Below, in pieces: positions 47 to 59,299 of a stretch of DNA of 64,000 nt; the stretch's first letter is position 1, and each line of letters begins with the position of its first letter. The stretch lies in assembly GCA_001025035.1 (NCBI GenBank), contig LCZK01000009.1, positions 558,001 through 622,000 on the forward strand, written 5' to 3'. The notes beneath the pieces are model-generated. The model did not search any database. It was not told the origin of the DNA and worked only from the letters and a program-made list of their open reading frames with translations. Both the position numbers and the translations under genes were made by a program. The DNA is from Actinobacteria bacterium IMCC26207. GTDB taxonomy: Bacteria; Actinomycetota; Acidimicrobiia; Acidimicrobiales; Microtrichaceae.

Positions 47-114
47 GTTTCAGACAGTTCCCGTTGTTTCAGACAGTTCCCGTTGTTTCAGACAGTTCCC
101 GTTGTTTCAGACAG
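47..114. repeat. 19-bp tandem repeat, 3.6 copies
   Basis: The unit GTTTCAGACAGTTCCCGTT is repeated three times exactly and then 11 more bases. It ends ten bases before the GTG start chosen for the sulfatase. The 19-bp unit is not a multiple of three and no coding role is seen. It is one of many locus-specific short tandem arrays at gene edges in this window. Confidence 0.95.
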
Positions 115-123
115 AATGGGTTC

Positions 124-1710
124 GTGACTGATTCCGTAAACACCAGTGCCGACAATCTGCCCCGGCCCAATATTTTGCTGATCACATTGGATCAGTTCCG
201 GGCCGAATGCCTATCCGCTGCGGGGCACCCCAACGTGCAAACCCCCAACCTTGACCGACTCGCCGAACAAGGCTTGCGCTTTGCAAACCACTACAGCAAC
301 TGCGCCCCTTGCGCTCCCGGCCGCGCATCGCTGCTGACTGGGCTCTGGCAAATGAACCACCGGGTAACGAACAACGGCGCACCCTTGGCAGACAATCTCC
401 CGATGCTGCCAAGGGAACTGCGCAGGGCGGGCTACGACCCAACCTTGTTTGGCTACACCGACACTGCGCTTGACCCAGCCACGTTGGAATCCGACGATCC
501 CAGGCGATGCAGCTACGAGCAGCCCATGGATGGATTCTCCGTCGGTGTCCTACTTGACGACAACATCGATCCGTGGATCGACTGGCTTGCGGATCAGGGC
601 TTTGCGGTACCCGATGAGAACCGAAAGATTTATGACCCCGCAGAGGTTCCGATTCCCGAGGGTCGAGGGGCAACTTGGCCACCCTCTACGTATTCGGCGC
701 AGCAAACCGAATCGGCGTTTTTGACCGAGGCAGCACTGAACTGGATCTCTTCACCAGACCGTGGAACTCAACCTTGGTGCGCGCACTTATCGTACCTACG
801 CCCGCATCCCCCGTACCTTGCCCCCTCGCCCTATAACGACATGTTCGACCCAGCCGACATGCCCGAGGTGGTGCGTCACCCGAGCATGCAACAAGAAGCC
901 GAGCAACACCCGTTCTTGGCTGCAGCCCTCACCATCGTGCCCTCCCCCGCCGAGGAACTCGACCAGCGACAACTGCAAGCCACGTACTTCGGCATGATCG
1001 CAGAAGTCGACCATCAGGTTGGGGTGCTACTCGACGGCCTCGACCAACTCGGTTGTACCGACAACACCATCGTGATCCTGACCTCTGATCACGGTGAACA
1101 ACTAGGCGACCACTGGTTCGTCGAGAAGCTGGGATTTTTTGATCAGAGCTATCGGATTCCACTCATCATCCGGGCACCTGGCCGTATCGAGCAGCCAGGC
1201 CGCGTGATCGAGGCCTTCAGTGAGAATGTTGACATTTTCCCAACGCTGCTTGAGCTCATTGGAGCGACCCCACCTGATTTTTGTGATGGTGCAAGCCTGC
1301 TGCCGTTCCTCGAGCAACCAGCCTTGGCTGCGTCTGGACCAGAGAACTGGCGATCGGCCGTGCAGTTTGAATTCGACTTTCGCGAGCCCAACAGCACCAT
1401 CATCGAGTCGATCTTCGGTATTCGCCAAGATCAGTGTGCTATCTCTGTGATCCGCGATCACGAGGCCAAATATGTGCACTTTTCCGGCGGATTACCGCCA
1501 CTTTTTTATGACCTGCGAGAGGATCCAGAAGAACTGCACAACGCAGCGCAGGACCCAGCTCTGGCGAGCAGGATTCTGGGCTACGCGCAACGCCTACTCA
1601 GCATGAAACTGGAACATAGCGACCCACGCCTTGCCAATACGCGGGCCACCGGGTTTGGAACCATTCATCGAGCCGACCCACCTCGGCCAGGTAGTCAGTC
1701 ACCGACCTAG
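124..1710 (+). CDS. Type I sulfatase (formylglycine-dependent)
   Basis: Predicted sulfatase of the alkaline phosphatase superfamily, hydrolysing a sulfate ester of unknown nature. From the GTG chosen here it has 528 residues. A metal-binding Asp lies in LLITLDQFRAE (about residue 23), the Cys converted to formylglycine lies in CAPGRASLLTG (about residue 63, C-x-P-x-R form), and TSDHGEQLGDHW (about residue 320) gives further metal ligands. No signal peptide is visible, so a cytoplasmic enzyme is likely. A TTG 60 bases upstream is in frame but would translate the tandem repeat, so it is not preferred. The gene stands alone on this strand before the transporter. Family assignment is secure and the substrate is unknown; sulfated polysaccharide or choline sulfate would be guesses. 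Confidence 0.9.
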   Translation: MTDSVNTSADNLPRPNILLITLDQFRAECLSAAGHPNVQTPNLDRLAEQGLRFANHYSNCAPCAPGRASLLTGLWQMNHRVTNNGAPLADNLPMLPRELRRAGYDPTLFGYTDTALDPATLESDDPRRCSYEQPMDGFSVGVLLDDNIDPWIDWLADQGFAVPDENRKIYDPAEVPIPEGRGATWPPSTYSAQQTESAFLTEAALNWISSPDRGTQPWCAHLSYLRPHPPYLAPSPYNDMFDPADMPEVVRHPSMQQEAEQHPFLAAALTIVPSPAEELDQRQLQATYFGMIAEVDHQVGVLLDGLDQLGCTDNTIVILTSDHGEQLGDHWFVEKLGFFDQSYRIPLIIRAPGRIEQPGRVIEAFSENVDIFPTLLELIGATPPDFCDGASLLPFLEQPALAASGPENWRSAVQFEFDFREPNSTIIESIFGIRQDQCAISVIRDHEAKYVHFSGGLPPLFYDLREDPEELHNAAQDPALASRILGYAQRLLSMKLEHSDPRLANTRATGFGTIHRADPPRPGSQSPT

Positions 1711-1783
1711 GCCACAAGAACGGTAGAGTAACCACCTCGCCCGGCTTCCTTTTTTGGTCGCCCTGACACTGTCTCGAACAGCC

Positions 1784-10528: not shown

Positions 10529-11064
10529 CTCCCCCTCTAGATACGCCCACACCAGAGACCCCCACATCAGACACGCCCCCTCCAGATACCCAGATCCTGA
10601 TGGATGCCCCGGCGCTTGATGCGTTCATGGCCCAAGCATTTGGTCAGCCACTGAACTGGACAATTGAGCGAGTGGATCTCGACGGGATTCGAGTTCGCCA
10701 GCCCACAACACAAGCGCAATCTCGTCCCGGCGGAACAGTTTCGGGCCCCACCTTGATGGCCATGGCTGATGGCGTTGCCTATATGGCTTTGCTCTCTCGC
10801 ATCGGCCCGGCAGCACTGGCAGTGACGAGCAATTTGAATATCAATTTTCTACGCAGACCCCGACTCGTTGACCTAGTCACTGATGCTCGACCACTCAAGA
10901 TCGGCAGAAACTTGGCTGTGATTGAAGTCTCGGTCTTTTCTGATGGCGGCCAAGCCGAAGATCTGCAAAAACCGGTGGCGCATGCCACGGTGACCTATTC
11001 ACTTACCTTGCTCGGGTCCCCAATCGAGTCCCGAACAATCACCGAAGGAGGAACACAAGCATGA
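10525..11064 (+). CDS. Hotdog-fold thioesterase (PaaI-like)
   Basis: 179-residue protein. The hotdog domain runs from about residue 26, with the active-site helix region RPGGTVSGPTLMAMADGVAY and the following strand TSNLNINFLRRP, typical of PaaI-like acyl-CoA thioesterases. Residues 1-25 are a disordered Pro/Thr/Asp tail made by a degenerate 15-bp in-frame repeat; ATG 10600 would remove it. The GTG start overlaps the previous stop (GTGA), and the 3' end overlaps the SDR start (ATGA), indicating tight translational coupling. Acyl-CoA hydrolysis is expected, chain length unknown. Confidence 0.85.
   Translation: MTPPLDTPTPETPTSDTPPPDTQILMDAPALDAFMAQAFGQPLNWTIERVDLDGIRVRQPTTQAQSRPGGTVSGPTLMAMADGVAYMALLSRIGPAALAVTSNLNINFLRRPRLVDLVTDARPLKIGRNLAVIEVSVFSDGGQAEDLQKPVAHATVTYSLTLLGSPIESRTITEGGTQA
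10540..10587. repeat. 15-bp degenerate in-frame repeat in the thioesterase N-terminus
   Basis: About three units of the form ACGCCCACACCAGAG encode TPTPE-TPTSD-TPPPD. The unit length keeps the frame, as in the other repeats that fall inside coding regions. Confidence 0.75.
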
Positions 11065-11852: not shown

Positions 11853-13243
11853 GCACTTTTGAAGGGGGACCGCTAGCAACTGGGCCAAGGCCACGGGACC
11901 TTGCTACGACTGAGCCTGATCTCGACAAGTTTGGATTCGCCGAACTCAGGCGAGTCATCACGGTAGGCCTGGTCTGCATCTGGTGCACCCTGCTGGCATT
12001 ACCACGGCGCTTTACCTCTTCATACTCAAGCTTTGCTGACGCAGCCGCTAACGGGCTCATCGATGCATTCATGCGCCTCGGGCCGACCTTCGTCAAGCTC
12101 GGTCAGATCATTGCCTCCTCCCCTGGGATCTTTCCCGTTTGGCTCACGGGGCCTGCGCGAAGATGCCTTGACGAGGTTCCGGCTTTTAGTTCCGAACTCG
12201 TTCGACTGACTGTGTCCGAGGACCTAGGCCGGCCGCTGCACGAGCTCTTCAACTCATTCGAGGACGAACCGCTCTCGGCGGCCTCCATCGGACAAGTTCA
12301 CGCCTGCACGCTGCTTGATGGACGTGAGGCTGTGGTCAAAGTTCAGCGCCCGAATCTGCGCCAGCAGATGACTACTGACCTGCGGGTACTCCAAGCAATT
12401 GCGCGGCTCGGCCAGCGAAGCAGTTGGGGAAGAAGTGCCAACTTATTGGGCATGGTGGCCGACGTATCAGCCCTAACCGCCCAGGAACTCAACCCCGTAC
12501 TTGAAGCCTGGAATCAGCAACGCTTTCGAGACAAGATCGGGGCATTCGGCGACAACACTTGGATTACTGCGCCCGAGGTGTACTGGGATTACTGCGGGCC
12601 AAGGACCATCTGCATGGAACGCGTTCGTGGGATTCCCATGGATCAATTCGAAGAAATCGAAGCGCGTGGAGTGGATGGGGAATTGCTGCTGCGCAGAGGG
12701 GCCAAAGTCTGGGTCGAGGCCGTTCTGGTTCATGGCCCCTTCCATGGCGATATGCATGCTGGAAACATCTGGTTGCTCGAGGATGGTCGGGCATGCTTCT
12801 TGGACTTTGGAATCATGGGAGAACTCGATAGCGAGTGGCGAGAGGTTGTGCGCGACCTGTATTTCACCTGCGTATTCGATCGGGAATTTCTTCGTATAGC
12901 GCAGGCCTACCGTCGGGTCGGGGTGTTCCCTGCTGATATGGGCACCGATGAGGAAATCGGAGAGCGCATCGGCATGATTCTGGGCCCGCTGCTGGACTCG
13001 GGCATGGCATCGGTCAGTCTCGGGGACTTGATTACCTCGAGCGTTGTGCTCATGAAGGAGTTCGGCGGAACTCCACCGCAGGAACTGATGTTGGTTGGTA
13101 AGCAACTTCTCTATATCGAGCGCTACACCAAGGAACTCGCCCCGGACTACGCAATGATCACTGATCCGTTTCTGCTGAGCAACGTCTTCCCCGAGGCGGC
13201 CGAAGAACTCCGCGCCCAGACAGGCACAGTCTTCCCAGACTGA
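11849..13243 (+). CDS. ABC1/UbiB-like atypical kinase
   Basis: 464-residue UbiB/ADCK-type protein. The family hallmarks are present in order: the KxGQ motif (PTFVKLGQIIASS, about residue 80), the Ala-rich loop SAASIGQVH replacing the P-loop, VVKVQRPN with the ion-pair Lys, the catalytic GPFHGDMHAGNIW, and the metal motif FLDFGIMGEL. Such proteins are ATPases linked to isoprenoid lipid (quinone) handling. There is no obvious C-terminal membrane helix. The GTG start overlaps the SDR stop. The last codons TVFPD-stop are the first unit of the hairpin repeat array that follows. Confidence 0.9.
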   Translation: MSTFEGGPLATGPRPRDLATTEPDLDKFGFAELRRVITVGLVCIWCTLLALPRRFTSSYSSFADAAANGLIDAFMRLGPTFVKLGQIIASSPGIFPVWLTGPARRCLDEVPAFSSELVRLTVSEDLGRPLHELFNSFEDEPLSAASIGQVHACTLLDGREAVVKVQRPNLRQQMTTDLRVLQAIARLGQRSSWGRSANLLGMVADVSALTAQELNPVLEAWNQQRFRDKIGAFGDNTWITAPEVYWDYCGPRTICMERVRGIPMDQFEEIEARGVDGELLLRRGAKVWVEAVLVHGPFHGDMHAGNIWLLEDGRACFLDFGIMGELDSEWREVVRDLYFTCVFDREFLRIAQAYRRVGVFPADMGTDEEIGERIGMILGPLLDSGMASVSLGDLITSSVVLMKEFGGTPPQELMLVGKQLLYIERYTKELAPDYAMITDPFLLSNVFPEAAEELRAQTGTVFPD

Positions 13244-13385
13244 ACCAGCACAGTCTTCCCAGACTGAACCAGCACAGTCTTCCCAGACTGAACCAGCACA
13301 GTCTTCCCAGACTGAACCAGCACAGTCTTCCCAGACTGAACCAGCACAGTCTTCCCAGACTGATTAGGCCAGTCTTCCCAGACTG
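13227..13385. repeat. Seven-copy hairpin array carrying in-frame stop codons
   Basis: CAGTCTTCCCAGACTG (6-bp perfect stem, 4-base loop) occurs at 13227, 13251, 13275, 13299, 13323, 13347 and 13370. The first six are spaced exactly 24 bp; the last is diverged and spaced 23. The first copy is the 3' end of the ABC1 kinase gene including its TGA. Each 24-bp unit keeps the frame and ends with TGA, so every unit would code TSTVFPD-stop. It may act as a strong transcript end or 3' stabiliser, or be a slippage product; no T-tract follows the hairpins. Confidence 0.97.
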
Positions 13386-13469
13386 AACCAGCCAAAATGA
13401 GAACACGTTCTTGTTCTGCTCTATGGTGCCTGCACATAATTAATCGAGCACCGATCACGAGGGAGTACC

Positions 13470-14363
13470 GTGACCACACCGAGCAATTCAGACAGCAGTT
13501 CAGCCAGCAATTCAGCCAGCAATTCAGCCAGCAGTTCAGGAAGCGCAGCAGAGAACGAAGCAGCAGTTCTGACCGAACGCCAAGGACACCTGTTGATCGT
13601 CACGCTGAACCGGCCGGAGCGAAAGAACGCCATCAATGGCGAGATGCTGGTTCGGATGCTCGACGCATTTATCGAGGCCGATACGAATCCTGACATTCGG
13701 GCCATCGTGCTGACTGGTGCTGGTGGAGATTTCTGCTCTGGAGCCGATCTGAAAGAGATGGCGGGCGGACATCAGGGCGATGTCGCCCCAGGAGAGATTG
13801 ATGTTCCGGCTCGGCTAGCCGCTGACCCGGACTTGCCATGGAAAGCGCTCTTGCGATCCTGGCAGCCAGATGTTCCGATCATTCTGGCCGCCGAAGGTGC
13901 AGCAATTGCTGGCGGAACCGAACTACTCGGAGCCACCGAGATTCGTGTGGCTGGCCGCTCAACCAAGTTTGGTATCTCCGAAGTGAAATGGTCGCTCTAC
14001 CCAATGGGCGGGTCCGTGGTTCGTATTCCTCGGCAAATTCCGTACACCATTGCGTGTGATCTGTTGCTCACCGGCCGCCATATCTCCGCCGAAGAGGCGT
14101 TGCAGATTGGCTTGATTGGCTATGTGGTTGAGGATGGCGAAGCCCTCGCAAAGGCCATCGAAATTGGCCAGCAAATCTGCGAGAACGGCCCTCTCTCCGT
14201 AAAGGCAATCCTGCGCACTCTGCGAGAGACCAATGGCATGCGTCAAGACGAGGCCCTTGAGCACGAGTTCACCTACGGGTGGGACGTATTCGGCTCGGAG
14301 GATGCCCGTGAAGGCCCGCGTGCATTCAAAGAAAAGCGCAAGCCAAACTTCCAGGGCAAGTAG
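13470..14363 (+). CDS. Enoyl-CoA hydratase/isomerase family protein
   Basis: Crotonase-fold protein of 297 residues. Oxyanion-hole segments are [10 protein letters not shown] (about residue 90) and [17 protein letters not shown] (about 145); the two Glu of crotonase correspond to GGTEL and FGISEVKW here, so hydratase chemistry is feasible. The N-terminal 30 residues are a Ser/Asn/Ala tail made by a 12-bp repeat and are not part of the fold. The start GTG has GGGAG six bases upstream. The gene begins a cluster with an F420 oxidoreductase and an SDR and lies in the beta-oxidation neighbourhood. Isomerase or hydrolase function is not excluded. Confidence 0.9.
13489..13536. repeat. 12-bp in-frame repeat in the crotonase N-terminus
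   Basis: Four units of CAGCCAGCAATT (first and last slightly diverged) encode [16 protein letters not shown]. It lies only about 100 bases downstream of the hairpin array, but the unit is unrelated. Confidence 0.85.
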
Positions 14364-14417
14364 GCAGCACAAGAAAGCAAGCAGCCAGAACCAGAAATAC
14401 AGATTTCAGGAGATCAC

Positions 14418-15461: not shown

Positions 15462-16271
15462 ATGAATCGTTTTGAAGGTCAGACCGTGCTCGTGACCGGA
15501 GCTGCTTCAGGAATTGGCTTTGCCACCGTGGAGCGCCTGCTCGCTGATGGAGCATGCGTTTTTGGCATTGATATCCAAGAACCGACGAGTGAACTTTCTG
15601 GTCACGATGGTCGCTTCGAGTTTCTCTCGGTGGACGTTCGTGATGCTGTCGCAGTTGAAGCCGCAGTAGCTGCGACGGTTCAAAAGTTCGGACGCATCGA
15701 TGGGCTCATGACTGCTGCCGGAGTAGCCGGAGGCGGAGCCGTTCATGACCTTCCTCAGGAGGAATGGGATCGGATCATTTCCATCAATCTGACTGGCACC
15801 TATATCGCATGCAAGTTTGTGCTGAAGGCAATGCTTGCGCAGGAACCGCTGACAGATCCCGCAGGCCACAGCAGTCGCGGTTCCATCGTGACAGTCTCAA
15901 GCGTTGAGGGCCTTGAAGGAACCACAGGTGGCAGCGCTTATAACGCTTCCAAAGGTGGGGTCGTGCTGCTCACCAAGAACCTAGCGATTGACTACGGCGG
16001 CCAGAGCATTCGGGCGAATGCCGTCTGTCCCGGGTTTATCGAGACTCCTATGACGGACGAAGTCTTTAATATGCCTGGCATGGAAGCGGTCCGTGACTCC
16101 TTCCGTAGGGCTCACATGGTTCGTCGCTTCGGACAGCCCTCCGAGATTGCTGCTGTCGCTGCATTCCTGCTGTCCCATGATGCTTCGTTCATGACAGGGC
16201 AGGCAGTAGCAGTGGATGGCGGCTACACGGCTGGCCATGAACACGGACTTGTTGAACTCTTAGGCTTGTAA
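15462..16271 (+). CDS. Short-chain dehydrogenase/reductase
   Basis: Classical SDR, 269 residues: TGAASGIG (about residue 12), Asp in FGIDIQEP after the second strand (NAD preference), AAGVAGGG in place of NNAG, catalytic Ser in VTVSSVEG and the YNASK Tyr-Lys pair. The tail MTGQAVAVDGGYTAGH is usual. AGGAG lies nine bases before the ATG. It is the last gene of the crotonase-LLM-SDR set. The 3' end LLGL-stop is duplicated in degenerate form in the spacer. Confidence 0.9.
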   Translation: MNRFEGQTVLVTGAASGIGFATVERLLADGACVFGIDIQEPTSELSGHDGRFEFLSVDVRDAVAVEAAVAATVQKFGRIDGLMTAAGVAGGGAVHDLPQEEWDRIISINLTGTYIACKFVLKAMLAQEPLTDPAGHSSRGSIVTVSSVEGLEGTTGGSAYNASKGGVVLLTKNLAIDYGGQSIRANAVCPGFIETPMTDEVFNMPGMEAVRDSFRRAHMVRRFGQPSEIAAVAAFLLSHDASFMTGQAVAVDGGYTAGHEHGLVELLGL

Positions 16272-16340
16272 CGAATCGGGCTTGTAACGAACTAGGCCTG
16301 TAACGAACTGTGCCTCTAAAAAATTGAGCCTGTAAAGGGC
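16263..16340. repeat. Degenerate 16-18 bp repeats copying an SDR stop region
   Basis: GGCTTGTAACGAATCG, GGCTTGTAACGAACTA and GGCCTGTAACGAACTGT follow one another, then GCCTCTAAAAAATTGA and GCCTGTAAAG. The first unit is the end of the SDR gene (Gly-Leu-TAA). Every unit retains a TAA. The array fills the gap between convergent genes. Confidence 0.85.
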
Positions 16341-20465: not shown

Positions 20466-20502
20466 CTCAGACTGTCAGCTAGCCGTGATTGACTAAGTAC
20501 AA

Positions 20503-23891: not shown

Positions 23892-23941
23892 CGACTCCCA
23901 CATGACCACAGCCACATGACCACAGCCACATGACCACAGCC
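23881..23941. repeat. 14-bp tandem repeat joining two acyltransferase genes
   Basis: Four units (CTCCCACATGACGA, CTCCCACATGACCA, then CAGCCACATGACCA twice) plus a partial one join the genes. The first unit contains the stop of the upstream gene (CACATGA) and the last contains the ATGACC start of the downstream gene, so each copy holds an overlapping ATG and TGA. The unit is not a multiple of three, so each copied ATG is in a different frame from its neighbours. Confidence 0.95.
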
Positions 23942-25198: not shown

Positions 25199-25285
25199 TT
25201 GCTTACTGAATCAACGCTGCTGACTTAATCAACGCTGCTGACTGAGTCAGGGCTGCCGATCAAGTCAGGGCTAATTGAGTCTGGG
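25199..25285. repeat. Degenerate 18-bp repeat downstream of the phasin-like gene
   Basis: GCTGCTGACTTAATCAAC, GCTGCTGACTGAGTCAGG and GCTGCCGATCAAGTCAGG are three 18-bp units, flanked by partial ones. On the minus strand, the sense of the upstream gene, they carry repeated TGA, TTGA and TAA triplets just after its stop codon. Confidence 0.8.
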
Positions 25286-26460: not shown

Positions 26461-26471
26461 ACAGTGCGGTA

Positions 26472-28148: not shown

Positions 28149-28154
28149 CGCTCA

Positions 28155-28193
28155 CCCCAGTATCCGCCACCCCAGTATCCGCCACCCCAGCCC
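28155..28193. repeat. 15-bp tandem repeat between glycosyltransferase genes
   Basis: ACCCCAGTATCCGCC is present twice exactly, followed by a partial ACCCCAGCC. It fills the 61-base spacer and contains no stop codon copy, unlike most others. Confidence 0.9.
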
Positions 28194-33342: not shown

Positions 33343-33359
33343 CTGCCCGGATTACCTGC

Positions 33360-33410
33360 TCTGTTTATTAGGCACTGTATTTATTAGGCACTGTGTTTAT
33401 TAGGCAGTCT
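33360..33410. repeat. 16-bp repeat copying the 3' end of the SdpI-like gene
   Basis: Three units of the form TGTTTATTAGGCAC are present. On the minus strand they read ...ACAGTGCCTAA-TAAA..., a near copy of the last codons and TAA of the minus-strand gene that ends at 33400, placed downstream of it. Confidence 0.85.
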
Positions 33411-34185: not shown

Positions 34186-34250
34186 GGGCTTGTCCTACTT
34201 GAGCAGAGCTTCTCCTACTTGAGCCGGGCTTCGCCTACTTGAGCAGGGCT
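34186..34250. repeat. 20-bp repeat copying the 3' end of the mycofactocin-type SDR gene
   Basis: Three units of the form GGCTTCTCCTACTTGAGC occur. The rightmost is the end of the minus-strand SDR gene (Leu-Leu-Lys-TAG); the other two lie downstream of it, and each keeps the CTA that reads TAG on that strand. Confidence 0.9.
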
Positions 34251-42532: not shown

Positions 42533-42616
42533 GCGGTCTCCTGTATGAGCCGGTCGGGATCAGGGGATCGATAAGTGTACCTACTCCCCCGGGCACAGAA
42601 AATCGGGTACCCCAGA

Positions 42617-42658
42617 GCCCGATTACTAGCCCAATTACTAGCCCGACTACTGGCCCAG
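42617..42658. repeat. 12-bp repeat spanning a minus-strand stop codon
   Basis: GCCCGATTACTA, GCCCAATTACTA and GCCCGACTACTG follow one another, then a partial GCCCAG. Read on the minus strand, the last codons GGC-CAG-TAG are followed by GGC-TAG-TAA twice, so the gene end is copied with its stop. Confidence 0.9.
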
Positions 42659-44060: not shown

Positions 44061-45050
44061 ATGACTCCAAACAGTTCAACTGACGCACTGCATATCGGCA
44101 TCCTTGTCATGGCGTATGGCACTCCCTCAAGTCCCGAGAACATTCCCGAGTACTACACGCATATTCGCCGTGGTCGGCCACCCACTGACGAACAGCTGCA
44201 AGATCTGATCAGCAGGTACGCGGCTATTGGCGGGATCTCTCCGTTGCGCGAACGAACCCAAGCTCAGCTCGATGCAGTTGAAGCAGCGCTCAAGGTCCTA
44301 GCGGGTGACTCCGCACACCCCGACTGCTTCTTGGTTCAACTCGGCCAAAAACATGCTGCTCCCTTCATTGAAGATGGGGTAGCAGCGCTGGTTCAGGCCG
44401 GGGCGCAGCGCATTGTTGGCCTCGTCCTTGCACCGCATTATTCGGGTTTCAGCGTGGGGCAATACCAGGCGCGAGCCGCGAGCGCCGCAGAGGAGTTTGG
44501 AGTGCCCTTCGTAGGCCTTGACTCTTGGAGCCTGAATGAGGCGTATCTCACGCATCAGGCCAATTCGGTTCGGGAACAACTTCAGGGCTTACCCGCGAAC
44601 ACGCATGTCTTCTTCACTGCACACTCACTACCTGAACGAGTGCTGCTCGATGACCCCTATCCAGAGCAGCTTCTAGCATCAGCTGAAGCAATCGCAGAGC
44701 GTGCTGGATTAGCCAGCAGTAACCAGGCCGGCAGTAATCAAACCTCTAGCAGTAATCAAACCTGGAGCATCGGTTGGCAATCCGCCGGGCGAACACCTGA
44801 GCCTTGGCGGGGACCAGACATTTTGGACTGCATCAAAGAAGTGTCTGCCACTGGCTCGGCTGAGGGGGTCCTAGTAGTGCCGCAGGGCTTTACTGCGGAT
44901 CACCTCGAGGTGCTCTTCGACCTAGATATTGAAGCTGCTGACCTGGCCGCTCAACTCGGCTTGGCCTTTGCTCGAACCGAGGTGGTCAATGCTGACTCCG
45001 CAGTGATGGCTGCGCTCGCCTCACTGCTGTTTGACCTCGCCGAGATATGA
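44061..45050 (+). CDS. hemH: Ferrochelatase, coproporphyrin type
   Basis: 329-residue ferrochelatase that inserts iron into coproporphyrin III (inferred from the gram-positive type gene set). GILVMAYGTPSSPENIPEYY, HYSGFSVGQYQ, FTAHSLPERV with the catalytic His, and FTADHLEVLFDLDIEA with the catalytic Glu are present. The Cys of [2Fe-2S] ferrochelatases are not seen. A repeated SNQ insertion (NQAGSNQTSSSNQ, about residue 220) from a 15-bp-type duplication lies just before WQSAGRTPEPW. ATG is ten codons into the overlap-free spacer; the stop overlaps hemY by four bases. Confidence 0.93.
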   Translation: MTPNSSTDALHIGILVMAYGTPSSPENIPEYYTHIRRGRPPTDEQLQDLISRYAAIGGISPLRERTQAQLDAVEAALKVLAGDSAHPDCFLVQLGQKHAAPFIEDGVAALVQAGAQRIVGLVLAPHYSGFSVGQYQARAASAAEEFGVPFVGLDSWSLNEAYLTHQANSVREQLQGLPANTHVFFTAHSLPERVLLDDPYPEQLLASAEAIAERAGLASSNQAGSNQTSSSNQTWSIGWQSAGRTPEPWRGPDILDCIKEVSATGSAEGVLVVPQGFTADHLEVLFDLDIEAADLAAQLGLAFARTEVVNADSAVMAALASLLFDLAEI

Positions 45051-46438
45051 GCCAATTGCTCATCATCGGCGGCGGCATCACTGGTCTGGCTGCTGCTTGG
45101 GAAGCCGTGCAGTTTCCCAGAGTTGAAGTCACCCTGATTGATGCTCAGCCTCGACTGGGTGGCAAAATTCTGGGCTCAGAAATCGCCATTGCGGATGAGC
45201 AGTCCTTGATGATCGACGAAGGCGCTGATGCCTTCTTGGCCCGTGTGCCAGACGCAGTTCAGCTCTGTAAAGAGCTTGGCCTAGAGGAAGAGTTCACCCA
45301 CCCTGCAGTCGGCCGAGCCCAAGTCTTTCTGGGGGGTGAGCTTCGATTCCTACCCACTGACACTGTGCTGGGAGTGCCCCTAAATTTTGAGTCGCTAGCT
45401 GCGAGCGGACTGCTCTCGGCCGCGGCCATTGAGCGTGCTCGCTCAGAGGTTGATGCCGATTGGCCCGCGCCCACAGGTGATGTGTCCATTGGGGAATTCC
45501 TGACCGAGCGATACGGGCGCGAGCTAGTGGAACATGTGGTTGCGCCGTTGATCGGTGGCATCAACGCCGGGAACGTGGACAGGCTCAGCCTGCAGGCAGT
45601 CACCCCGCAACTCTTTGCGGCCGCTCGTGGCGGCGGCAGCTTGACCCTGGCACTGCGTAAACAGCAACAACAGTCCCCTGCTGATCCGACGGATCCTGTC
45701 TTTACAGCGCTGCGTGGTGGTACCTCAGTCCTAGTTGACGCGCTCCACGATGCCCTCGAAGCCAGAGGGGTCCAGATCCTTACTGAGTCCGAAGCAGTGA
45801 GCTGTTCGCAGTCAGACCAAGGCAAGATCCTCACTGAGTTGAGCACCGGGCCCATCTCATCTGATGAGGTGCTGATCTGCGCTTCGGCTGCCAAGGCCGC
45901 TCAGCTACTTCGCAGCATCAGCCCAAACACAGCCAGGCAGCTTGAACAAATTTCCTATTCCTCAGTTGCGTTACTCACGTTCGTCTTTAACAAAGAGTCG
46001 GTACCGGGCGAGCTACTTGCATCTGGATTTTTGATTCCCCGGACGGCTCAGCTGCTCATGACTGCTGCCTCGGTGGGGTCAACCAAATGGGCTCATTGGG
46101 ATGATGGGAAACACGTTGTGCTGCGCGTTTCTGCTGGTCACTCGGGTGATCTTCGAGGCGCAGAGCTGACAGACGAAGAACTCATCTTGGGCTTGCAAGC
46201 TGATCTGCAGACCACCTTAGGAATCACAGACCCTGCAGTAGCCACTCGGGTTTCTCGGTGGCCCGATGGATTTGCGCAGTACGAAGTTGGGCATCTGCAA
46301 CTCATTGAGAGCATTGAGCAATCCCTGAACAAAGATTGCCCGCAGATTTTGCTCGCAGGTTCCTCGTATCGGGGCCTTGGGATTCCTGCATGCATCGAGC
46401 AAGGCCGAAGCGCCGCCGCCAAACTCGTAGACAGCTAG
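45047..46438 (+). CDS. hemY: Coproporphyrinogen III oxidase (HemY/CgoX type)
   Basis: 463-residue FAD oxidase of coproporphyrinogen III in the coproporphyrin-dependent heme route. The FAD-binding IIGGGITGLAAAWEA starts at residue 6, the substrate-domain GVPLNFESLAASGL and the final SYRGLGIPACIEQGRSAA are family-typical. Start ATG overlaps the hemH stop. The usual third partner, chdC/hemQ, does not follow; a divergent lipoprotein gene does, so chdC must be elsewhere if the route is complete. Confidence 0.93.
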   Translation: MSQLLIIGGGITGLAAAWEAVQFPRVEVTLIDAQPRLGGKILGSEIAIADEQSLMIDEGADAFLARVPDAVQLCKELGLEEEFTHPAVGRAQVFLGGELRFLPTDTVLGVPLNFESLAASGLLSAAAIERARSEVDADWPAPTGDVSIGEFLTERYGRELVEHVVAPLIGGINAGNVDRLSLQAVTPQLFAAARGGGSLTLALRKQQQQSPADPTDPVFTALRGGTSVLVDALHDALEARGVQILTESEAVSCSQSDQGKILTELSTGPISSDEVLICASAAKAAQLLRSISPNTARQLEQISYSSVALLTFVFNKESVPGELLASGFLIPRTAQLLMTAASVGSTKWAHWDDGKHVVLRVSAGHSGDLRGAELTDEELILGLQADLQTTLGITDPAVATRVSRWPDGFAQYEVGHLQLIESIEQSLNKDCPQILLAGSSYRGLGIPACIEQGRSAAAKLVDS

Positions 46439-46477
46439 CTACTGCAGTCTCAGCTACTGCAGTACTAACTACTGCCC
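46438..46477. repeat. 15-bp repeat between convergent hemY and lipoprotein genes
   Basis: GCTACTGCAGTCTCA and GCTACTGCAGTACTA plus a diverged third copy occur. On the minus strand each retains GCAGTAG; the third holds the true Ser-Ser-TAG end of the lipoprotein gene. Confidence 0.85.
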
Positions 46478-46998: not shown

Positions 46999-47034
46999 CC
47001 TTTGATGTGCAATATGCCTTTGATGTGCACTGTG
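46999..47034. repeat. 18-bp duplication copying a ribosome-binding site
   Basis: CCTTTGATGTGCAATATG and CCTTTGATGTGCACTGTG are adjacent near-copies. On the minus strand each reads ...GCACATCAAAGG; the copy next to the gene supplies the AAAGGA ribosome-binding site of the lipoprotein gene, so the second is a spare copy 18 bp upstream. Confidence 0.85.
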
Positions 47035-47231
47035 CCTACGGACTTTCGCTCGGCACAGACTGCCTTTCACAATAGGCCAAGCAGCTAGGTGACCTGATAA
47101 CCCGCACCCGCTAACCCGTACCTGCTCGCTCCGCGCTACTGGCTCCAACCCCTAGGCGCGCTCAGCGGATTTTCTCAGGCTACGGCTTGGGTTCGTACAA
47201 GTTGGCCGGCAGGGTGCGAAGATCATGGTTC

Positions 47232-48710
47232 GTGAAACCGCATCTGCTCCGTCTCGTATTAGGTCTGCTTGCTGGGCTGATGATCTGCGCTGCGCTACCA
47301 CCTTGGGGATGGTGGCCACTCGCTATGGTCGGAATCGCCTTGTGGGCTGCGCTGCTGGGCAATCAGGCAGGGCTGCAGCGCTTCCTGATCTCTTGGATGG
47401 TTGGCCTAGGTTGGTTTGCGCCTTCGGTACTCTGGATGTGGAAACTCACACCCCCTGGCTACTTGGGCGGTCTGCTGTTTGGTTGGACGATCATGGTCGG
47501 CCTGGTTGGCCTATCCGTTCCGCCGAACCGCTGGAGGCTCTTGATGCTGCCGGCAAGCGTGGTGATCTTTGAGTGGTTCCACTGCCACGCGCCATTCGGG
47601 GGCGTGCCGTTGTCCCTGCTGTCGATGAGCCAAGGCCGCGGTCCGCTGTTGCCGATTGCTCGACTTGGCGGAGGCCTACTGGTGAGTGCTGCAGTGGCCG
47701 CTTTGGGCATTGCGTTGTACATCGCTGTGGCAGAGAAACAGTGGAAGCAACCGTTAGCTGTGCTGTTGGGTTGTGCGCTGCTCGTCGGGGCTGGCATGGC
47801 CTCGCTCAATCTGGTGCACCCGATCTCGGGCCCCGATAACCAGATGCGCATTGCTGCAGTTCAGGGTGGAGGCAAACAGGGGACGCTGTTCGACTCCGAG
47901 CAGGTTCCCGAGGTGTTCAACGCTCACCTACGAGCAACGCAATCAATAGATCAGCCTGTTGATTTGGTGATCTGGCCCGAGAACGCCATCAACGTAGCGG
48001 GACCTTTTAGCCAAGATGCTTGGAAAGATCAGATTGCAACAGAAGCAGAGCGCCTCAACGCTCCAATCCTGGCGGGGGTAGTCGAGGATGATCCGAACGA
48101 TCCCAAGCAGTTCCTGAACTACTCAGTGATAGTCAATCCCGATGGCACTCTCGGTGACCGTTACGACAAAGAACGCAGGGTTCCCTTCGGCGAATACGTT
48201 CCGCTTCGCTGGCTCTTTGAGCCACTCGGCGGTAGTTCCCTTCCGCCTCGTGACGCATCACCCGGGGTAGGACCCTCGATGGTAGAGACCCCTGCGGGGC
48301 CTATTGCGGTGGCCATTAGTTGGGAAGTTTTCTTTGCGCGACGGATTCGAGAAGGGGTCCGACTCGGAGGCGAAGTTGTTGTCAATCCAACGAACGGTTC
48401 GAGTTACTGGCTGACTCAGGTACAAACCCAGCAACTTGCTACCTCTGCATTTCGAGCAGTCGAGAGTGGCCGCTGGCTTGTTCAGACCTCACCCACAGGG
48501 TTTTCAGCTGTATTTGATGACACAGGCAAGATCTTGCAGCGCAGCAACATCAGTGAATCCAAGGTGTTGATCGCAAGCGTCCCTCGGATGACCGGAACAA
48601 CTCCTGCGCAGGCACTCGGAGACGTACCAGCGCTGTTTTTGGCCGGAATTGCCATCGCTTTGGCAGGGTCTCACCGCATCCGCAGCCGTTCCAAGAGCCC
48701 CGTCATTTGA
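47232..48710 (+). CDS. lnt: Apolipoprotein N-acyltransferase-like protein, Cys to Ser at the active site
   Basis: 492-residue protein: six to seven N-terminal membrane helices and a nitrilase domain (about 205-460). The nitrilase Glu is in DLVIWPENAI and the Lys in RYDKERRVPFGEY, as in Lnt. The third catalytic residue, a Cys in the usual ICYEV-type motif, is Ser here (AISWEV; codon AGT at 48318-48320). In Lnt this Cys carries the acyl group. Either Ser takes over or activity is lost. GTG 47232 is used; GTG 47214 and TTG 47187 are also open. No Ppm1-type dolichol mannose synthase is fused or adjacent. Confidence 0.85.
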   Translation: MKPHLLRLVLGLLAGLMICAALPPWGWWPLAMVGIALWAALLGNQAGLQRFLISWMVGLGWFAPSVLWMWKLTPPGYLGGLLFGWTIMVGLVGLSVPPNRWRLLMLPASVVIFEWFHCHAPFGGVPLSLLSMSQGRGPLLPIARLGGGLLVSAAVAALGIALYIAVAEKQWKQPLAVLLGCALLVGAGMASLNLVHPISGPDNQMRIAAVQGGGKQGTLFDSEQVPEVFNAHLRATQSIDQPVDLVIWPENAINVAGPFSQDAWKDQIATEAERLNAPILAGVVEDDPNDPKQFLNYSVIVNPDGTLGDRYDKERRVPFGEYVPLRWLFEPLGGSSLPPRDASPGVGPSMVETPAGPIAVAISWEVFFARRIREGVRLGGEVVVNPTNGSSYWLTQVQTQQLATSAFRAVESGRWLVQTSPTGFSAVFDDTGKILQRSNISESKVLIASVPRMTGTTPAQALGDVPALFLAGIAIALAGSHRIRSRSKSPVI

Positions 48711-48731
48711 CCATCAGCATTTGACCATCAG
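48704..48731. repeat. Perfect 14-bp duplication at the lnt stop codon
   Basis: CATTTGACCATCAG occurs twice in a row. The first copy contains the lnt TGA; the second copy puts another TGA 14 bases downstream. Confidence 0.95.
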
Positions 48732-53687: not shown

Positions 53688-54947
53688 TTGGATGTGCGTA
53701 GATTCCTGATTGCAGGCCTTCTGGCGGTCAGCGCTGTGGCTTGCGGTAACTCACAACCTTCCGATAGCCCTGCCGCCTCAGCTTCGCTCCCTGCCGCCTC
53801 AGCCTCGCTGCCTGCTACACCAGCTTCGCTCCCTGCTGTGTCGCTTGCCCCACTCCCTGCTGTCTCGCTTGAACCGCTCAAGGCAGACTTTGAGAATCCC
53901 ATCGCGGGTGCTGCCTTACCCGGCAGCGATTCCTTGCTCATCGCCGAGCGGGCAGGCAGAGTCATCCTTGTCAATCGCTCCGATGCCGGACAGGTCACCT
54001 CGACGGAGACAGCACTAGATATCGAGAAGCTGGTTGGAAGCACAGATGCCGAGCGCGGTCTGCTCGGAATCGCCGTTCGACCGGATGGCTCGGAATTGTT
54101 CCTGAGCTATACCTCGAGCAAAGACGGCAGCAGCCAACTCGACTCATACAAGCTCAATGGAGCGACAGTTGAGCCCAATACCCGAAAAAGCGTATTGAGC
54201 GTTGAGCAGCCTTTCGAGAATCACAACGGCGGCCATATCGCCTTTGGACCCGATGGGTTTTTATACATGTCCCTCGGTGATGGTGGCAGCTCTGGCGACC
54301 CCAATGGCAATGCCCAGAATCGGGCAGTGTTGCTCGGAAAGATTCTGCGGTTAGATCCCGATGCGGAACAGGCAGTAGCTGCTGACAATCCCTTTGTGAA
54401 CACTCCAGGAGCACAGCCGCAGATTTGGCTGACCGGTGTACGAAACCCTTGGCGATTTAGTTTCGACTCGGCCACGGGCGACCTCTGGGTCGGCGATGTC
54501 GGACAGAACCAGACCGAGGAGATCGACTTTCTTCCAGCAAGCCAAGGCGGGGGACGCGGAGCAAACCTTGGCTGGGATATCTACGAGGGAACGGCCGAAT
54601 TCGAGGACCCCAACCCCGCAACTGGAGCGAGCAGCGCCGGTCCATTTACCGAGCCTCTAGTGAGCTATTCACACGATGAAGGTTGTTCGGTTACTGGGGG
54701 TGTGGTGTATCGCGGCAAAGCAATCCCCTCCCTAGAAGGTGCATATCTATTCGCAGATTTTTGCAACCCCGAAATCAAAACCATTCGGCTGGCCTCAGTA
54801 ACCCAGCCAGATTCCGGCGCAGAGCCCAGTGTGGAATCCCTCGGGGTGGAGTTACCAAGCACGGTTGGATTCTTTGAGGATTCTTCCGGAGAAATCCTCG
54901 TGATCAGCCTGACAGAAGGCGTTTTTCAGATAGTCGATCAAAATTAA
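53688..54947 (+). CDS. PQQ-dependent sugar dehydrogenase-like lipoprotein
   Basis: 419-residue exported protein with a six-bladed beta-propeller of the soluble glucose dehydrogenase/HIPL type (AERGLLGIAVRPDGS, ENHNGGHIAFGPDGFLYM, SLGDGGSSGDPNGNAQN, GVRNPWRFSFDSATGDLWVGD). The His-Asn-Gly-Gly and Arg of the PQQ pocket are present. A signal peptide with lipobox VACG (about residue 19) precedes a 35-residue Ala/Ser/Pro linker made by a repeat of PAAS/LPAVS units. Start is TTG 53688 or GTG 53694. Sugar oxidation linked to envelope glycan turnover is plausible. Confidence 0.85.
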   Translation: MDVRRFLIAGLLAVSAVACGNSQPSDSPAASASLPAASASLPATPASLPAVSLAPLPAVSLEPLKADFENPIAGAALPGSDSLLIAERAGRVILVNRSDAGQVTSTETALDIEKLVGSTDAERGLLGIAVRPDGSELFLSYTSSKDGSSQLDSYKLNGATVEPNTRKSVLSVEQPFENHNGGHIAFGPDGFLYMSLGDGGSSGDPNGNAQNRAVLLGKILRLDPDAEQAVAADNPFVNTPGAQPQIWLTGVRNPWRFSFDSATGDLWVGDVGQNQTEEIDFLPASQGGGRGANLGWDIYEGTAEFEDPNPATGASSAGPFTEPLVSYSHDEGCSVTGGVVYRGKAIPSLEGAYLFADFCNPEIKTIRLASVTQPDSGAEPSVESLGVELPSTVGFFEDSSGEILVISLTEGVFQIVDQN

Positions 54948-55079: not shown

Positions 55080-55114
55080 GAGACTTGCCTAGACCGGAGA
55101 CTTGGCCTAGACCG
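55080..55114. repeat. 17/18-bp duplication at a TetR gene stop
   Basis: GAGACTTGCCTAGACCG and GAGACTTGGCCTAGACCG are adjacent. On the minus strand the right copy holds the true Val-TAG end of the TetR gene and the left copy repeats it with another TAG. Confidence 0.92.
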
Positions 55115-55832
55115 GCCGGGTCATTCCCAGAATCAGAGACTCCATAGAAATCGCTAGGAGCGTCCAAGGGCGCGTTGAGGATTCACGCTCTTGGCTCCCA
55201 GGCCAGTCGTATTCCTTCCACAGCCGGTCAGGGCTTCCCAGCACGGGGCTAGCGAAACCGGTAATCAGGTTGCTTGAGGCAATCGAGAGCTCGCGATACC
55301 CCAACGGTGGCAGGGGTTCTCGAGCAATTCGAGCCAGGCCAACTGTCCAAAAATCATCAAGTCGTTTCAGGGTTTCTTCGGTTTCAGAGTCTGAGTACAT
55401 CCCGTGTAAGGCCAGCATTTCGGTGGCATTCCAAAGTGGGGCTTCCTCCCCCGAGGTGCGTTCCAACTCGGCTGCAGTTATTTCTACGATCAAATCCGTC
55501 ATGTTCGAAGGCAAATATTTTGCCATCTCAGCCAAGTCTTCTGGCACTGAGGACCGCTGCAGGAGCCGATCTGATACGGATTCTAGGTACGCCTCGAATG
55601 CCGAGGAATTTGCAGACCCGGTGTCTCCCCAGTAGTGATACAGCAAACCCCGACTCAGCCCAGCTCGCTTCGAGACTGCTCCAGCATTCAGGTATGCGTA
55701 GACCTCTCGCAAGCCGGTCCCTTGCGCATAGTGCTCCAAAACAAGTTCACAGCCAGCCTCAATCAGCCTGCCGCGCGCAATCGCCGCAGCTTTTTCGCTT
55801 TCCAACTGCGTTGGATTCTCTTGAGCGGCCAT
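55107..55832 (-). CDS. TetR-family transcriptional regulator
   Basis: 241-residue protein. The HTH is GAVSKRAGLSRGLLYHYWGD (about 52-71), preceded by the usual helix-1 sequence ARGRLIEAGCELV. The ligand domain is unassigned. Divergent from the PlsC-like gene with a 62-base gap; the regulator may control that gene, though no clear palindrome is visible there. Whether it recognises the GCTAAC-N4-GTTAGC operators at 25.7 kb cannot be told. Confidence 0.8.
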   Translation of the reverse strand: MAAQENPTQLESEKAAAIARGRLIEAGCELVLEHYAQGTGLREVYAYLNAGAVSKRAGLSRGLLYHYWGDTGSANSSAFEAYLESVSDRLLQRSSVPEDLAEMAKYLPSNMTDLIVEITAAELERTSGEEAPLWNATEMLALHGMYSDSETEETLKRLDDFWTVGLARIAREPLPPLGYRELSIASSNLITGFASPVLGSPDRLWKEYDWPGSQERESSTRPWTLLAISMESLILGMTRPV

Positions 55833-57258: not shown

Positions 57259-57362
57259 AACTCTTTGCACTCCCTAGCTCAACGCTCTGCTCAGGATTTC
57301 CTCTCGAAGAAAAGTACCAGCATCGGCCGACCTGATCGCTCTCTATCCGCTGGCGCAATGCA

Positions 57363-57476
57363 CTCTGCTGGCGCAATGCACTCTGCTGGCGAAATGCACT
57401 CTGCATCCGCAATACGCTCTGCTGGCGAAATGCACTCTGCTGGCGCAATGCACTCTGCATCCGCAATACGCTCTGC
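57363..57476. repeat. 18-bp tandem array with two unit types
   Basis: Six full 18-bp units of CTCTG-starting sequence: type A (GCTGGCG[CA]AATGCA core) and type B (GCATCCGCAATACG core) in the order A, A, B, A, A, B, so a 54-bp higher-order unit is present twice. It ends at the ATG of the F420 protein gene and fills the divergent gap with plsC. Each type A unit contains an ATG. Confidence 0.95.
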
Positions 57477-58423: not shown

Positions 58424-58474
58424 GGGGGGCTATCTGGCTGAACGTCTCTCTTAGGCACGGGGCGAACCTAGCAT

Positions 58475-58497
58475 TTGACCTCAACCTAAGTTGAGGT
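58475..58497. promoter_or_regulatory. SoxR box with overlapping -35
   Basis: ACCTCAACCTAAGTTGAGGT (58478-58497) is a perfect palindrome with 8-bp arms and a 4-base centre, almost identical to the E. coli soxS operator core CCTCAA-N6-TTGAGG. TTGACC (58475-58480) on the + strand is the likely -35 of the downstream operon. A -10 at the longer spacing of MerR promoters is not clear. Confidence 0.92.
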
Positions 58498-58559
58498 ATC
58501 AGAGTAGTGCGTCTGGGCGGAAGCACCGCCTAGGCCACTCAGACGTAGGAGCAACAGCG

Positions 58560-58877
58560 ATGGCAACGTTCATGGTGATCTGCACATTTCGAGAGGGCAC
58601 GGACATGACAGAGGTCTTTGCCACTGTCGCAGAGGAACAGGCTCAGGCTGCAGCCCTAGCCGCAGAAGGTCGTGTGGGATCTATTTACTTAGCGATAGCC
58701 CGAGGAACCGTTTTCATTGAGACGTTCGCCGAGGACCCACAAGAGGCTATTGCCACGGTCAAGACGCTACCCATGGCCGCTTGGTGGGATCTGGATGTCT
58801 TCGCAGTAAATGCTCCCCCCGAAGCCGAAGATGCAACAGGAGCCACAGCAGGAGACCCATCAGGAGAAGCGTCATGA
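58560..58877 (+). CDS. Small ferredoxin-like-fold protein, muconolactone isomerase-like
   Basis: 105-residue protein of the muconolactone delta-isomerase-like/dimeric alpha-beta barrel group: MATFMVICTFREGTDMTEVF and the end VKTLPMAAWWDLDVFAV. The core resembles small proteins of actinobacteria without assigned reactions. AGGAG lies ten bases before ATG. It is first in the SoxR-controlled operon, so a role in handling redox-active compounds is inferred. The stop overlaps the next ATG (ATGA). Confidence 0.72.
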   Translation: MATFMVICTFREGTDMTEVFATVAEEQAQAAALAAEGRVGSIYLAIARGTVFIETFAEDPQEAIATVKTLPMAAWWDLDVFAVNAPPEAEDATGATAGDPSGEAS

Positions 58878-59299
58878 GCGCCTTCACCGAAGCGGAACTC
58901 GCCTATTTAGGCTCGCAGCCGCTCATGCGTTTCGCCACCGCGTCAGCATCCGGTAAGCCGGACGTGGCACCAGTGATCTTTGAAGTTGAGGGCGACGCGA
59001 TTGTCACCGCTGGGTTCGATATCACCCACACGGTTCGCTACAGGAATATCCAGAACAACCCGCGTGCCACGCTCGTCATTGATGACCTAGCAACTATTGA
59101 TCCGTGGTCGCCACGCGGGATCAAGATCACCGGGACAGCCGAAATCGAGCAGGTCAACGGTGCCCCGCGGTTTCGCATTACGCCCGAGGTGATCATCAGT
59201 TGGGCAGTGAACGACACCACGCCGGGTATCCCAAAAATGGACCGCCGGGAAATCCCTCGCAGCACAGTCCCTCGCAGCACAGTCCCTCGCAGCGAGTAG
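58874..59299 (+). CDS. PPOX-class F420-dependent oxidoreductase, SoxR-controlled
   Basis: 141-residue FDOR-type split barrel: FTEAELAYLGSQPLMRFATA, GKPDVAPVIFEVEGD, THTVRYRNIQNNPRATLVID and a WSPRGIKITG strand resemble the MSMEG_5819-like group. ATGA overlap with the previous gene. The tail REIPRSTVPRSTVPRSE is a 15-bp in-frame repeat up to the stop. Probably reduces a quinone or similar compound sensed by SoxR; the cofactor is inferred. Confidence 0.85.
   Translation: MSAFTEAELAYLGSQPLMRFATASASGKPDVAPVIFEVEGDAIVTAGFDITHTVRYRNIQNNPRATLVIDDLATIDPWSPRGIKITGTAEIEQVNGAPRFRITPEVIISWAVNDTTPGIPKMDRREIPRSTVPRSTVPRSE
59253..59296. repeat. 15-bp in-frame repeat at the C-terminus of a PPOX protein
   Basis: TCCCTCGCAGCACAG twice, then a diverged third unit that runs into the stop codon. 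It encodes PRSTV-PRSTV-PRSE. Confidence 0.95.

What the first reader, a model, noticed from the sequence alone, without database searches (positions are those of the whole stretch)
47..59296. Window-wide locus-specific tandem duplications at gene ends, often copying the stop codon
About eighteen short tandem arrays (12-24 bp units) are seen, each with its own unrelated sequence. Most sit at gene boundaries. In at least nine cases the unit is the final codons plus stop of the adjacent gene, copied one to six times downstream, on either strand (13.2, 16.3, 23.9, 33.4, 34.2, 42.6, 46.4, 48.7 and 55.1 kb). Copies within genes keep the frame and fall in disordered tails or linkers. One explanation is replication slippage tolerated only where proteins do not care; another is selection for backup stop codons or 3' structures. 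I know of no described system of this kind.
Basis: partly seen in the sequence, partly recalled or inferred. Interest (0 to 1): 0.8.

Follow-up and report, generated by a model that had tools for sequence, protein, structure and literature searches.

The report
Tandem repeats piling up at gene ends
This bacterium and its relatives carry many short tandem repeats, each with its own sequence, that straddle the stop codons of genes and change copy number between species; they are likely ordinary copying slips that survive there because a duplication across a stop codon leaves the protein unchanged and the DNA just behind a gene appears to matter least.

Summary
All nine named arrays straddle a stop codon, plus one more at 14.4 kb. 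In 859 kb (26%) of the same genome 190 arrays were found: 96 inside genes (94 with units divisible by three), 38 across a stop, 3 across a start only, 53 intergenic; shuffled sequence gave none across a stop. Per position where a duplication would leave proteins intact, stop-crossing arrays are 6.7 times as frequent as interior intergenic ones; seven relatives pooled show 4.1 times. Between congeners 22 of 26 arrays differ in length, 18 by close to whole units.

The exotic readings fail: no reading-frame preference across stops, copied stop triplets no better kept than others, no unusual structure on average. Substitutions and small indels are also most frequent just behind stop codons and fall with distance. 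These are ordinary minisatellites (VNTRs), denser in noncoding DNA than in seven sampled relatives. MutS was found in none of 26 genomes of the order searched. Why this genus has so many, and whether mutation itself is also biased to gene ends, stays open.

The parts
13224..13392 (+). 24-bp array, 7.1 copies, across the TGA of gene 11849-13243 (ABC1 kinase-like)
   Evidence: 2 copies in G001 and G002, about 4 in G004
14356..14397 (+).
   Evidence: copied triplet is CAG
16261..16309 (+). 16-bp array, 3.1 copies, across the TAA of gene 15462-16271
   Evidence: 48 nt shorter in G004
23884..23941 (+). 14-bp array, 4.1 copies, across the TGA of 22668-23891 and the start of 23930-25096
33359..33413 (-). 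16-bp array, 3.4 copies, across the TAA of ORF 33400-33636(-)
   Evidence: 1.4 copies in G003, 2.4 in G004
34186..34250 (-). 20-bp array, 3.2 copies, across the TAG of 34235-35077(-)
   Evidence: about one copy in G002, one more than here in G003
42616..42657 (-). 12-bp array, 3.5 copies, across the TAG of ORF 42647-42907(-)
   Evidence: ORF supported by codon-position divergence 18/7/89; counted as intergenic
46435..46475 (.). 15-bp array, 2.7 copies, across both stops of the convergent pair 45047-46438(+) and 46465-46992(-)
   Evidence: three units longer in G001, one shorter in G003
48704..48731 (+). 14-bp array, 2 perfect copies, across the TGA of 47325-48710
   Evidence: two copies also in G001, G003, G004, a decayed pair in G002
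55080..55115 (-). 18-bp array, 2.1 copies, across the TAG of 55107-55832(-)
   Evidence: single copy in G003
47..114 (.). 19-bp intergenic array, 3.6 perfect copies, before gene 124-1710
   Evidence: two units fewer in G001, G004, G005
10546..10591 (+). 15-bp in-frame array near the start of gene 10525-11064
   Evidence: differs by whole units in G001, G004, G005
13482..13539 (+). 12-bp in-frame array, Ser/Asn-rich N-terminal tail of 13470-14363
25200..25249 (.). 18-bp intergenic array, 2.8 copies
27632..27666 (+). 18-bp in-frame array in gene 26409-28148
28153..28190 (.). 15-bp array beginning just behind the stop of 26409-28148
29442..29467 (.). 12-bp intergenic array, 2.2 copies, same length in G001, G003, G004
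35495..35532 (-). 18-bp in-frame array in the 1553-aa gene 35116-39777(-); further in-frame arrays at 35894-35930 and 39499-39557
44731..44769 (+). 18-bp in-frame array in gene 44061-45050
46999..47037 (.). 18-bp intergenic array, 2.2 copies, three units longer in G004
53768..53836 (+). 21-bp in-frame array in gene 53688-54947
57354..57476 (.). 18-bp units nested in a 54-bp higher-order array, intergenic
59253..59293 (+). 15-bp array, 2.7 perfect copies, at the end of ORF 58874-59299; not compared with relatives

Best explanation
The arrays are independent tandem repeats that vary in copy number, mostly by whole units, between related species, likely made by slippage or duplication between short direct repeats anywhere in the genome and kept mainly where they would do no harm. 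A duplication whose unit spans a stop codon puts its extra copies behind the first stop, so the protein is unchanged at any unit length; [quoted passage not shown] SHOWN: reality, frame rule, straddling of the stop, copy-number change, like gradients of arrays, substitutions and small indels. INFERRED: that purifying selection causes the gradient, and that slippage is the birth mechanism.
For: Frame rule: 94 of 96 in-gene arrays have units divisible by three; stop-crossing 13 of 36, mod 3 = 13/10/13. Asymmetry: 38 arrays cross a stop (2 of them also a start), 3 a start only; per protein-silent position 5.1/kb at stops, 0.76/kb interior, 0.53/kb at starts (42/8231, 39/51135, 5/9385). Array starts fall with distance from the stop: 3.6-3.9 per kb in the last 20 nt of the gene, 2.6 at 0-9 nt behind it, 1.6 at 10-19, 1.2 at 20-39, 0.8 at 40-79, 1.0 at 80-160. 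Substitutions against G001/G003/G004 fall alike: 0.108 at 0-19 nt, 0.074, 0.067, then 0.03-0.04 (0.16 at fourfold sites); same trend in G005 and, less smoothly, G002. Indels of 1-7 nt against G001/G003/G004/G005: 9, 7, 4, 0 events, 5.5, 6.6, 2.7, 0.0 per kb at 0-19, 20-39, 40-79, 80-399 nt. Copy number: 22 of 26 arrays with aligned flanks differ in length from G001, G003 or G004, 18 by close to whole units. Birth: 71 near-perfect two-copy arrays extend on average 4.1 nt beyond two copies. Ku not found in 6 of 6 genus genomes; MutS not found in 26 of 26.
Against: The stop excess over interior intergenic positions (6.7-fold) exceeds the roughly 3-fold substitution gradient, so a mutational bias may add to tolerance. 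Even in convergent intergenic regions, which hold no promoter for the flanking genes, 16 of 19 arrays cross a stop against 11.8 expected (P 0.011). The indel gradient rests on 20 small events. A cruder test puts the stop (42 of 462) only 1.65 times above random intergenic points (16 of 290); that test also counts later copies of long arrays. Two of the seven relatives do not show a clear stop excess singly: G038 (1/1891 stop, 2/11456 interior, 2/2027 start) and G047 (2/1946 against 11/12769). Part of the 4.1-nt overhang may be remains of a lost copy. The density in this genus is not explained.
Confidence: 0.82

Rival explanations
1. Gene 3' ends are true mutational hot spots: where ribosomes leave the transcript, R-loops or paused polymerase would raise the rate of tandem duplication around the stop codon.
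For: Stop excess larger than the substitution gradient; excess also in convergent regions and in seven relatives pooled, 1.72 against 0.41 per kb, P 2e-7.
Against: Small non-repeat indels and substitutions follow a like gradient, which tolerance alone predicts; array coverage also rises inside genes near both protein ends (0.005 at 181-200 nt before the stop to 0.016 at 21-40 nt; 0.014 at 40-59 nt after the start against about 0.006-0.010 further in).
Confidence: 0.13
2. Selection for backup stop codons: the copies catch ribosomes that read through or slip past the first stop.
For: The triplet one period on is a stop in 33 of 42 cases; next in-frame stop nearer in array genes, median 9 against 17 codons, one-sided P 0.038.
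Against: No preference for units divisible by three (13/10/13); stop triplet identical in 29 of 42 (0.69) against 0.73 for other triplets; mean distance to the next in-frame stop about equal, 33.4 and 34.7 codons.
Confidence: 0.02
3. Selected 3' structures or terminators: the repeats would form hairpins or protein-binding sites that end or stabilise transcripts.
For: A few arrays fold well (13224-13392: CAGTCT-TCCC-AGACTG; 46435-46475; 55080-55115); 11% of stop-crossing and 9% of intergenic arrays reach the lowest 5% of their permutations.
Against: Mean z of 38 stop-crossing arrays -0.20 +/- 0.18 against column-permuted arrays; TTTT within 12 nt after only 1 of 36; base make-up behind array genes like that of others, C 0.285 and 0.296, G 0.275 and 0.273 (31 and 339 genes).
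Confidence: 0.03

Closest known systems
Bacterial minisatellites / VNTR loci (as used in MLVA typing; listings seen, definition recalled)
   Same: Locus-specific tandem units, in and between genes, with copy number differing mostly by whole units between relatives.
   Different: Dense in noncoding DNA (1.07 per noncoding kb against 0.26-0.84 in seven relatives) and concentrated across stop codons; measured here between species, not strains.
Tandem repeats of Borg elements (PMC9879509; abstract, section 6 part 1, section 9 and passages seen)
   Different: Borg repeats are A-rich and were collected with a threshold that allowed no mismatch; these are mostly imperfect and lie in a bacterial chromosome.
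Mycobacterial interspersed repetitive units, MIRU (passages of PMC2734929 seen; overlap of MIRUs with stop and start codons is recalled)
   Same: Tandem units between genes, variable copy number.
   Different: MIRUs are repeats of 40-100 bp scattered over 41 places; here 89 of 94 noncoding arrays had no dispersed relative at E 0.01 in the 859-kb sample.
TAACTGA direct repeats of Beggiatoaceae (PMC4679880, abstract seen)
   Same: Intergenic direct repeats whose unit holds stop triplets.
   Different: One fixed heptamer, in the genome described mostly just upstream of start codons; here units differ from array to array and start-crossing is rare.

Membership tests
Minisatellite / VNTR locus | Head-to-tail copies of a unit of roughly 9-100 bp | tested here: met
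Minisatellite / VNTR locus | Copy number varies between related genomes in whole units | tested here: met
   22 of 26 vary, 18 by close to whole units
Minisatellite / VNTR locus | Variation between strains of one species | not testable with these tools
   the genome search holds one genome per species
MIRU-like dispersed repeat family | Units at different loci share sequence | tested here: not met
   5 of 94 noncoding arrays have any dispersed relative in the sample
REP/PU-type palindromic repeats | Units are palindromic with structure above chance | tested here: not met
   mean z -0.20 +/- 0.18 for stop-crossing, 0.02 +/- 0.17 for intergenic arrays; single arrays do fold well
Borg-type tandem repeats | In-ORF units divisible by three | tested here: met
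   94 of 96
Borg-type tandem repeats | Perfect copies (a search threshold of that paper) | tested here: not met
   many arrays at 67-95% match
Borg-type tandem repeats | Strong A enrichment of the units | not tested
   only sequence behind array genes was measured, A 0.234 against 0.213
Backup-stop system | Copied stops in frame and kept better than neighbouring bases | tested here: not met

The most novel reading that the evidence does not exclude
Gene 3' ends in this order of bacteria are true hot spots of tandem duplication birth, tied to the end of translation or transcription, so that stop codons are continually re-copied and the zone behind genes is rebuilt from the genes' own last codons, giving a steady source of new C-termini and 3' regions.
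Probability: 0.13. Interest if true: 0.65.

Novelty: new member of a known kind. Interest (0 to 1): 0.3.

Why it matters
It shows in numbers where short tandem duplications survive in compact bacterial chromosomes: in frame in loose protein segments, and across stop codons at any length. The zone just behind stop codons is the fastest-changing noncoding DNA measured here, a useful warning against reading function into repeats there. These loci could serve as strain markers for this group. The density in a genus where no MutS was found makes the source of the duplications testable. If mutation itself proved biased to gene ends, that would be a new link between gene expression and genome change.

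Tried and rejected
Backup stops: rejected on frame and stop-triplet conservation, one weak result in favour told. Hairpins or terminators: rejected on mean folding and T-runs. C-rich, G-poor sequence behind array genes (a Rho-site idea): no difference found. Ku-dependent end joining as the source of duplications: Ku not found in any of 6 genus genomes, though five of them are only 62-84% complete. Dispersed mobile family: rejected (one array of 94 does have a 37-bp relative at 97%). Chance: rejected by shuffles. The 15-18 nt mode in the indel spectrum (29 of the 114 indels of 3-40 nt against G001/G003/G004) looked like a mechanism signature but is inflated by in-frame coding events, and the same mode among TRF arrays by TRF's length threshold, so nothing is built on it. 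Leading or lagging strand: GC skew on C9 was too flat to place the origin, so not tested. No Rfam match at gathering threshold in the window. An E. coli control was considered and not run because too few arrays were expected there (a guess).

Limits: genes were called with a home-made program that missed at least one gene (42647-42907), so some 'intergenic' arrays may be coding or stop-crossing; 26 of the 53 have units divisible by three, more than a third. The silent-target rates keep intergenic regions of 0-500 nt only; arrays elsewhere were dropped from those rates. An array across two stops counts at both gene ends there. Of the 25 window arrays, 24 were compared with relatives (59253-59293 was not). 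Indel and substitution counts pool relatives, so one change may count more than once. The relatives of the genus are fragmented drafts and copy numbers in them may be collapsed.
Full report
WHAT WAS CHECKED. The window is contig C9, 558001-622000, of a 3.32-Mb bacterial genome in 10 contigs, 92.7% complete. Record titles of relatives name Microthrixaceae, Acidimicrobiaceae and Acidimicrobiia bacteria among others, so it is likely a member of the Acidimicrobiia.

There are 25 arrays in the window (score at least 50, unit 8-60 bp, at least 1.9 copies, overlaps removed). For 42616-42657 this needs ORF 42647-42907(-), which my caller missed; its divergence by codon position among relatives is 18/7/89, as for a real gene. 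The stop lies at varied places in the array's beginning, so the unit usually holds some last codons, the stop and some bases behind it. In the 859-kb sample there are 190 arrays: 96 inside genes, 36 across a stop, 2 across a stop and a start, 3 across a start, 53 intergenic. Shuffling codons in genes and bases between genes gave, over three replicates together, 10 in-gene, 1 intergenic and no stop-crossing arrays. A second test without TRF found a copy of the stop-bearing unit directly behind 42 of 462 genes, against 1 of 462 with shuffled downstream sequence, 2 of 462 at points inside genes, 4 of 570 at starts and 16 of 290 at random intergenic points.

THE EXCESS IS MORE THAN 'NOT INSIDE A GENE'. 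A duplication is protein-silent if its unit ends at or behind the stop. Counting such unit positions in intergenic regions of 0-500 nt, arrays occur at 5.1 per kb across stops (42 gene ends, 8231 positions), 0.76 per kb in the interior (39, 51135) and 0.53 per kb across starts (5, 9385) (binomial P 6e-16 for stop against interior). With each array placed at random within its own region, 21 of 47 cross a stop in co-directional regions (8.7 expected, not reached in 10,000 draws) and 16 of 19 in convergent ones (11.8 expected, P 0.011). In 382 kb of the five other genus genomes, partly the same loci, 94 arrays fall 38 in genes, 33 across stops, 20 intergenic, 3 across starts; in 22 loci of other genera (332 kb), 31 arrays fall 17, 5, 9 and 0. 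In seven further genomes of the family and order (1.6 Mb), 26 stop-crossing over 15,103 positions stand against 39 interior over 93,999, 1.72 and 0.41 per kb, P 2e-7; the four from other families of the order alone give 10 and 18, P 0.003. G038 rests on one stop-crossing array (with two at starts) and G047 shows no excess.

WHY THERE. Array starts become rarer with distance from the stop: 3.57 and 3.86 per kb in the last 20 nt of the gene, 2.62 at 0-9 nt, 1.62 at 10-19, 1.2 at 20-39, 0.76 at 40-79, 0.96 at 80-160. Sequence divergence outside arrays does much the same. Against G001, G003 and G004 it is 0.108 at 0-19 nt behind the stop, 0.074 at 20-39, 0.067 at 40-59 and 0.03-0.04 beyond, with 0.16 at fourfold sites; G005 and G002 show the same trend, G002 less smoothly. 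Small indels (1-7 nt, against G001, G003, G004, G005) fall as well: 9, 7, 4 and 0 events in 1626, 1054, 1462 and 2074 aligned bases at 0-19, 20-39, 40-79 and 80-399 nt; longer ones outside arrays 8, 2, 1 and 1. So the zone just behind a stop is the least constrained noncoding DNA measured, and the arrays follow it. The array gradient is steeper than the substitution gradient, as expected if a 16-bp insertion harms more than a substitution, but an added mutational bias is not excluded.

WHAT IT IS NOT. Backup stops would favour units divisible by three and would keep the copied stop. Neither holds: 13/10/13 by unit length modulo 3 and 29 of 42 stop triplets identical, 0.69, against 0.73 for other triplets; any stop in 33 of 42. 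Array genes do have a nearer next in-frame stop by the median, 9 against 17 codons (43 and 713 genes), one-sided P 0.038, with about equal means. Structure: the mean folding z of 38 stop-crossing arrays is -0.20 +/- 0.18, with 11% in the lowest 5% of permutations, and 1 of 36 is followed by TTTT. Base composition behind array genes is like that behind others. The units do not form a dispersed family: 5 of 94 noncoding arrays have any relative elsewhere in the sample.

DYNAMICS AND SOURCE. The arrays are variable-number loci. Of 26 arrays with flanks aligned in G001, G003 or G004 (92.6-93.7% identity over aligned DNA), 22 differ in length, 18 by close to whole units, in all three classes (8 of 9 in genes, 7 of 8 intergenic, 7 of 9 across stops). 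Examples: 7.1, 2, 2 and about 4 copies at 13224 in the window, G001, G002 and G004; two units fewer at 47-114 in three relatives. Relatives also have stop- or junction-crossing copies that the window lacks, for example near 52005 and 60662. Near-perfect two-copy arrays run on average 4.1 nt beyond two copies (71 arrays), in line with birth between short direct repeats; PMC4169377 reports direct repeats, and a second kind of element, mediating such births in bacteria (abstract and one section read). Ku is not found in any of the six genus genomes, which speaks against Ku-dependent end joining. MutS is not found in 26 of 26 genomes searched, NucS is found in 20 of 26 including all six of the genus, and NucS is reported unable to correct indels (PMC8228993, passages seen). 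As this holds across the order, it does not explain why this genus has 1.07 noncoding arrays per noncoding kb against 0.26-0.84 in the seven others. In-gene arrays are not rarer elsewhere: all classes together, the GC-rich G010 and G034 have 31.5 per 100 kb against 22.1 here.

INSIDE GENES. 94 of 96 arrays keep frame. Their residues are enriched in T, P, S, G and N and depleted in F, C, W, Y and I; 17 lie within 40 aa of the N-terminus and 20 within 40 aa of the C-terminus, for which no null was computed. This composition is typical of loose, non-globular segments (general knowledge; no disorder predictor was run).

AGAINST WHAT IS KNOWN. This is minisatellite biology. The nearest published picture is that of the Borg elements (PMC9879509; [quoted passage not shown] Full-text searches for tandem repeats with stop codons, VNTR with 'overlapping the stop codon', 'downstream of the stop' with slippage, Acidimicrobiia with tandem repeats, prokaryotic genomes with stop codons, and short tandem duplications with stop codon listed 25 of 202, 20 of 2,375, 20 of 37, 0, 4 of 4 and 0 papers; no listed title or shown start of an abstract reports an excess of tandem repeats across bacterial stop codons. 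Papers under closed licences are not in that library.

VERDICT. A correct and strong observation, with an ordinary best explanation: slippage and duplication filtered by purifying selection, in a lineage with more noncoding tandem repeats than the seven relatives sampled.

Noticed in passing
59253-59385: tRNA-Leu(CAG) at 59295-59385 lies one base behind a 15-bp array (59253-59293) and overlaps the last 5 bases of ORF 58874-59299; Rfam at gathering threshold did not report the tRNA.
   Followed up: no
57354-57476: 18-bp units are nested in a 54-bp higher-order repeat; four relatives have 33 to 87 nt here instead of 123.
   Followed up: partly
L060: The public record is titled Bifidobacterium breve, but its relative of the window's 20503-22572 protein is 100% identical to it; the label is probably wrong.
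   Followed up: no
18015-22572: Looks like a type II topoisomerase gene pair (recalled, no family search run); a second relative of the 20503-22572 protein with 42% identity lies at C6:201551-203485.
   Followed up: no
genus and order genomes: MutS (PF00488) not found in 26 of 26 genomes; NucS (PF01939) found in 20 of 26, including all six of this genus.
   Followed up: yes
52005-52030: In relatives a 15-bp unit that appears to hold the start codon is repeated at the junction of genes 50953-52008 and 52020-52463; a possible start-copying case.
   Followed up: no
42647-42907: An 86-aa gene without Pfam match, missed by my caller, with clear codon-like divergence.
   Followed up: partly
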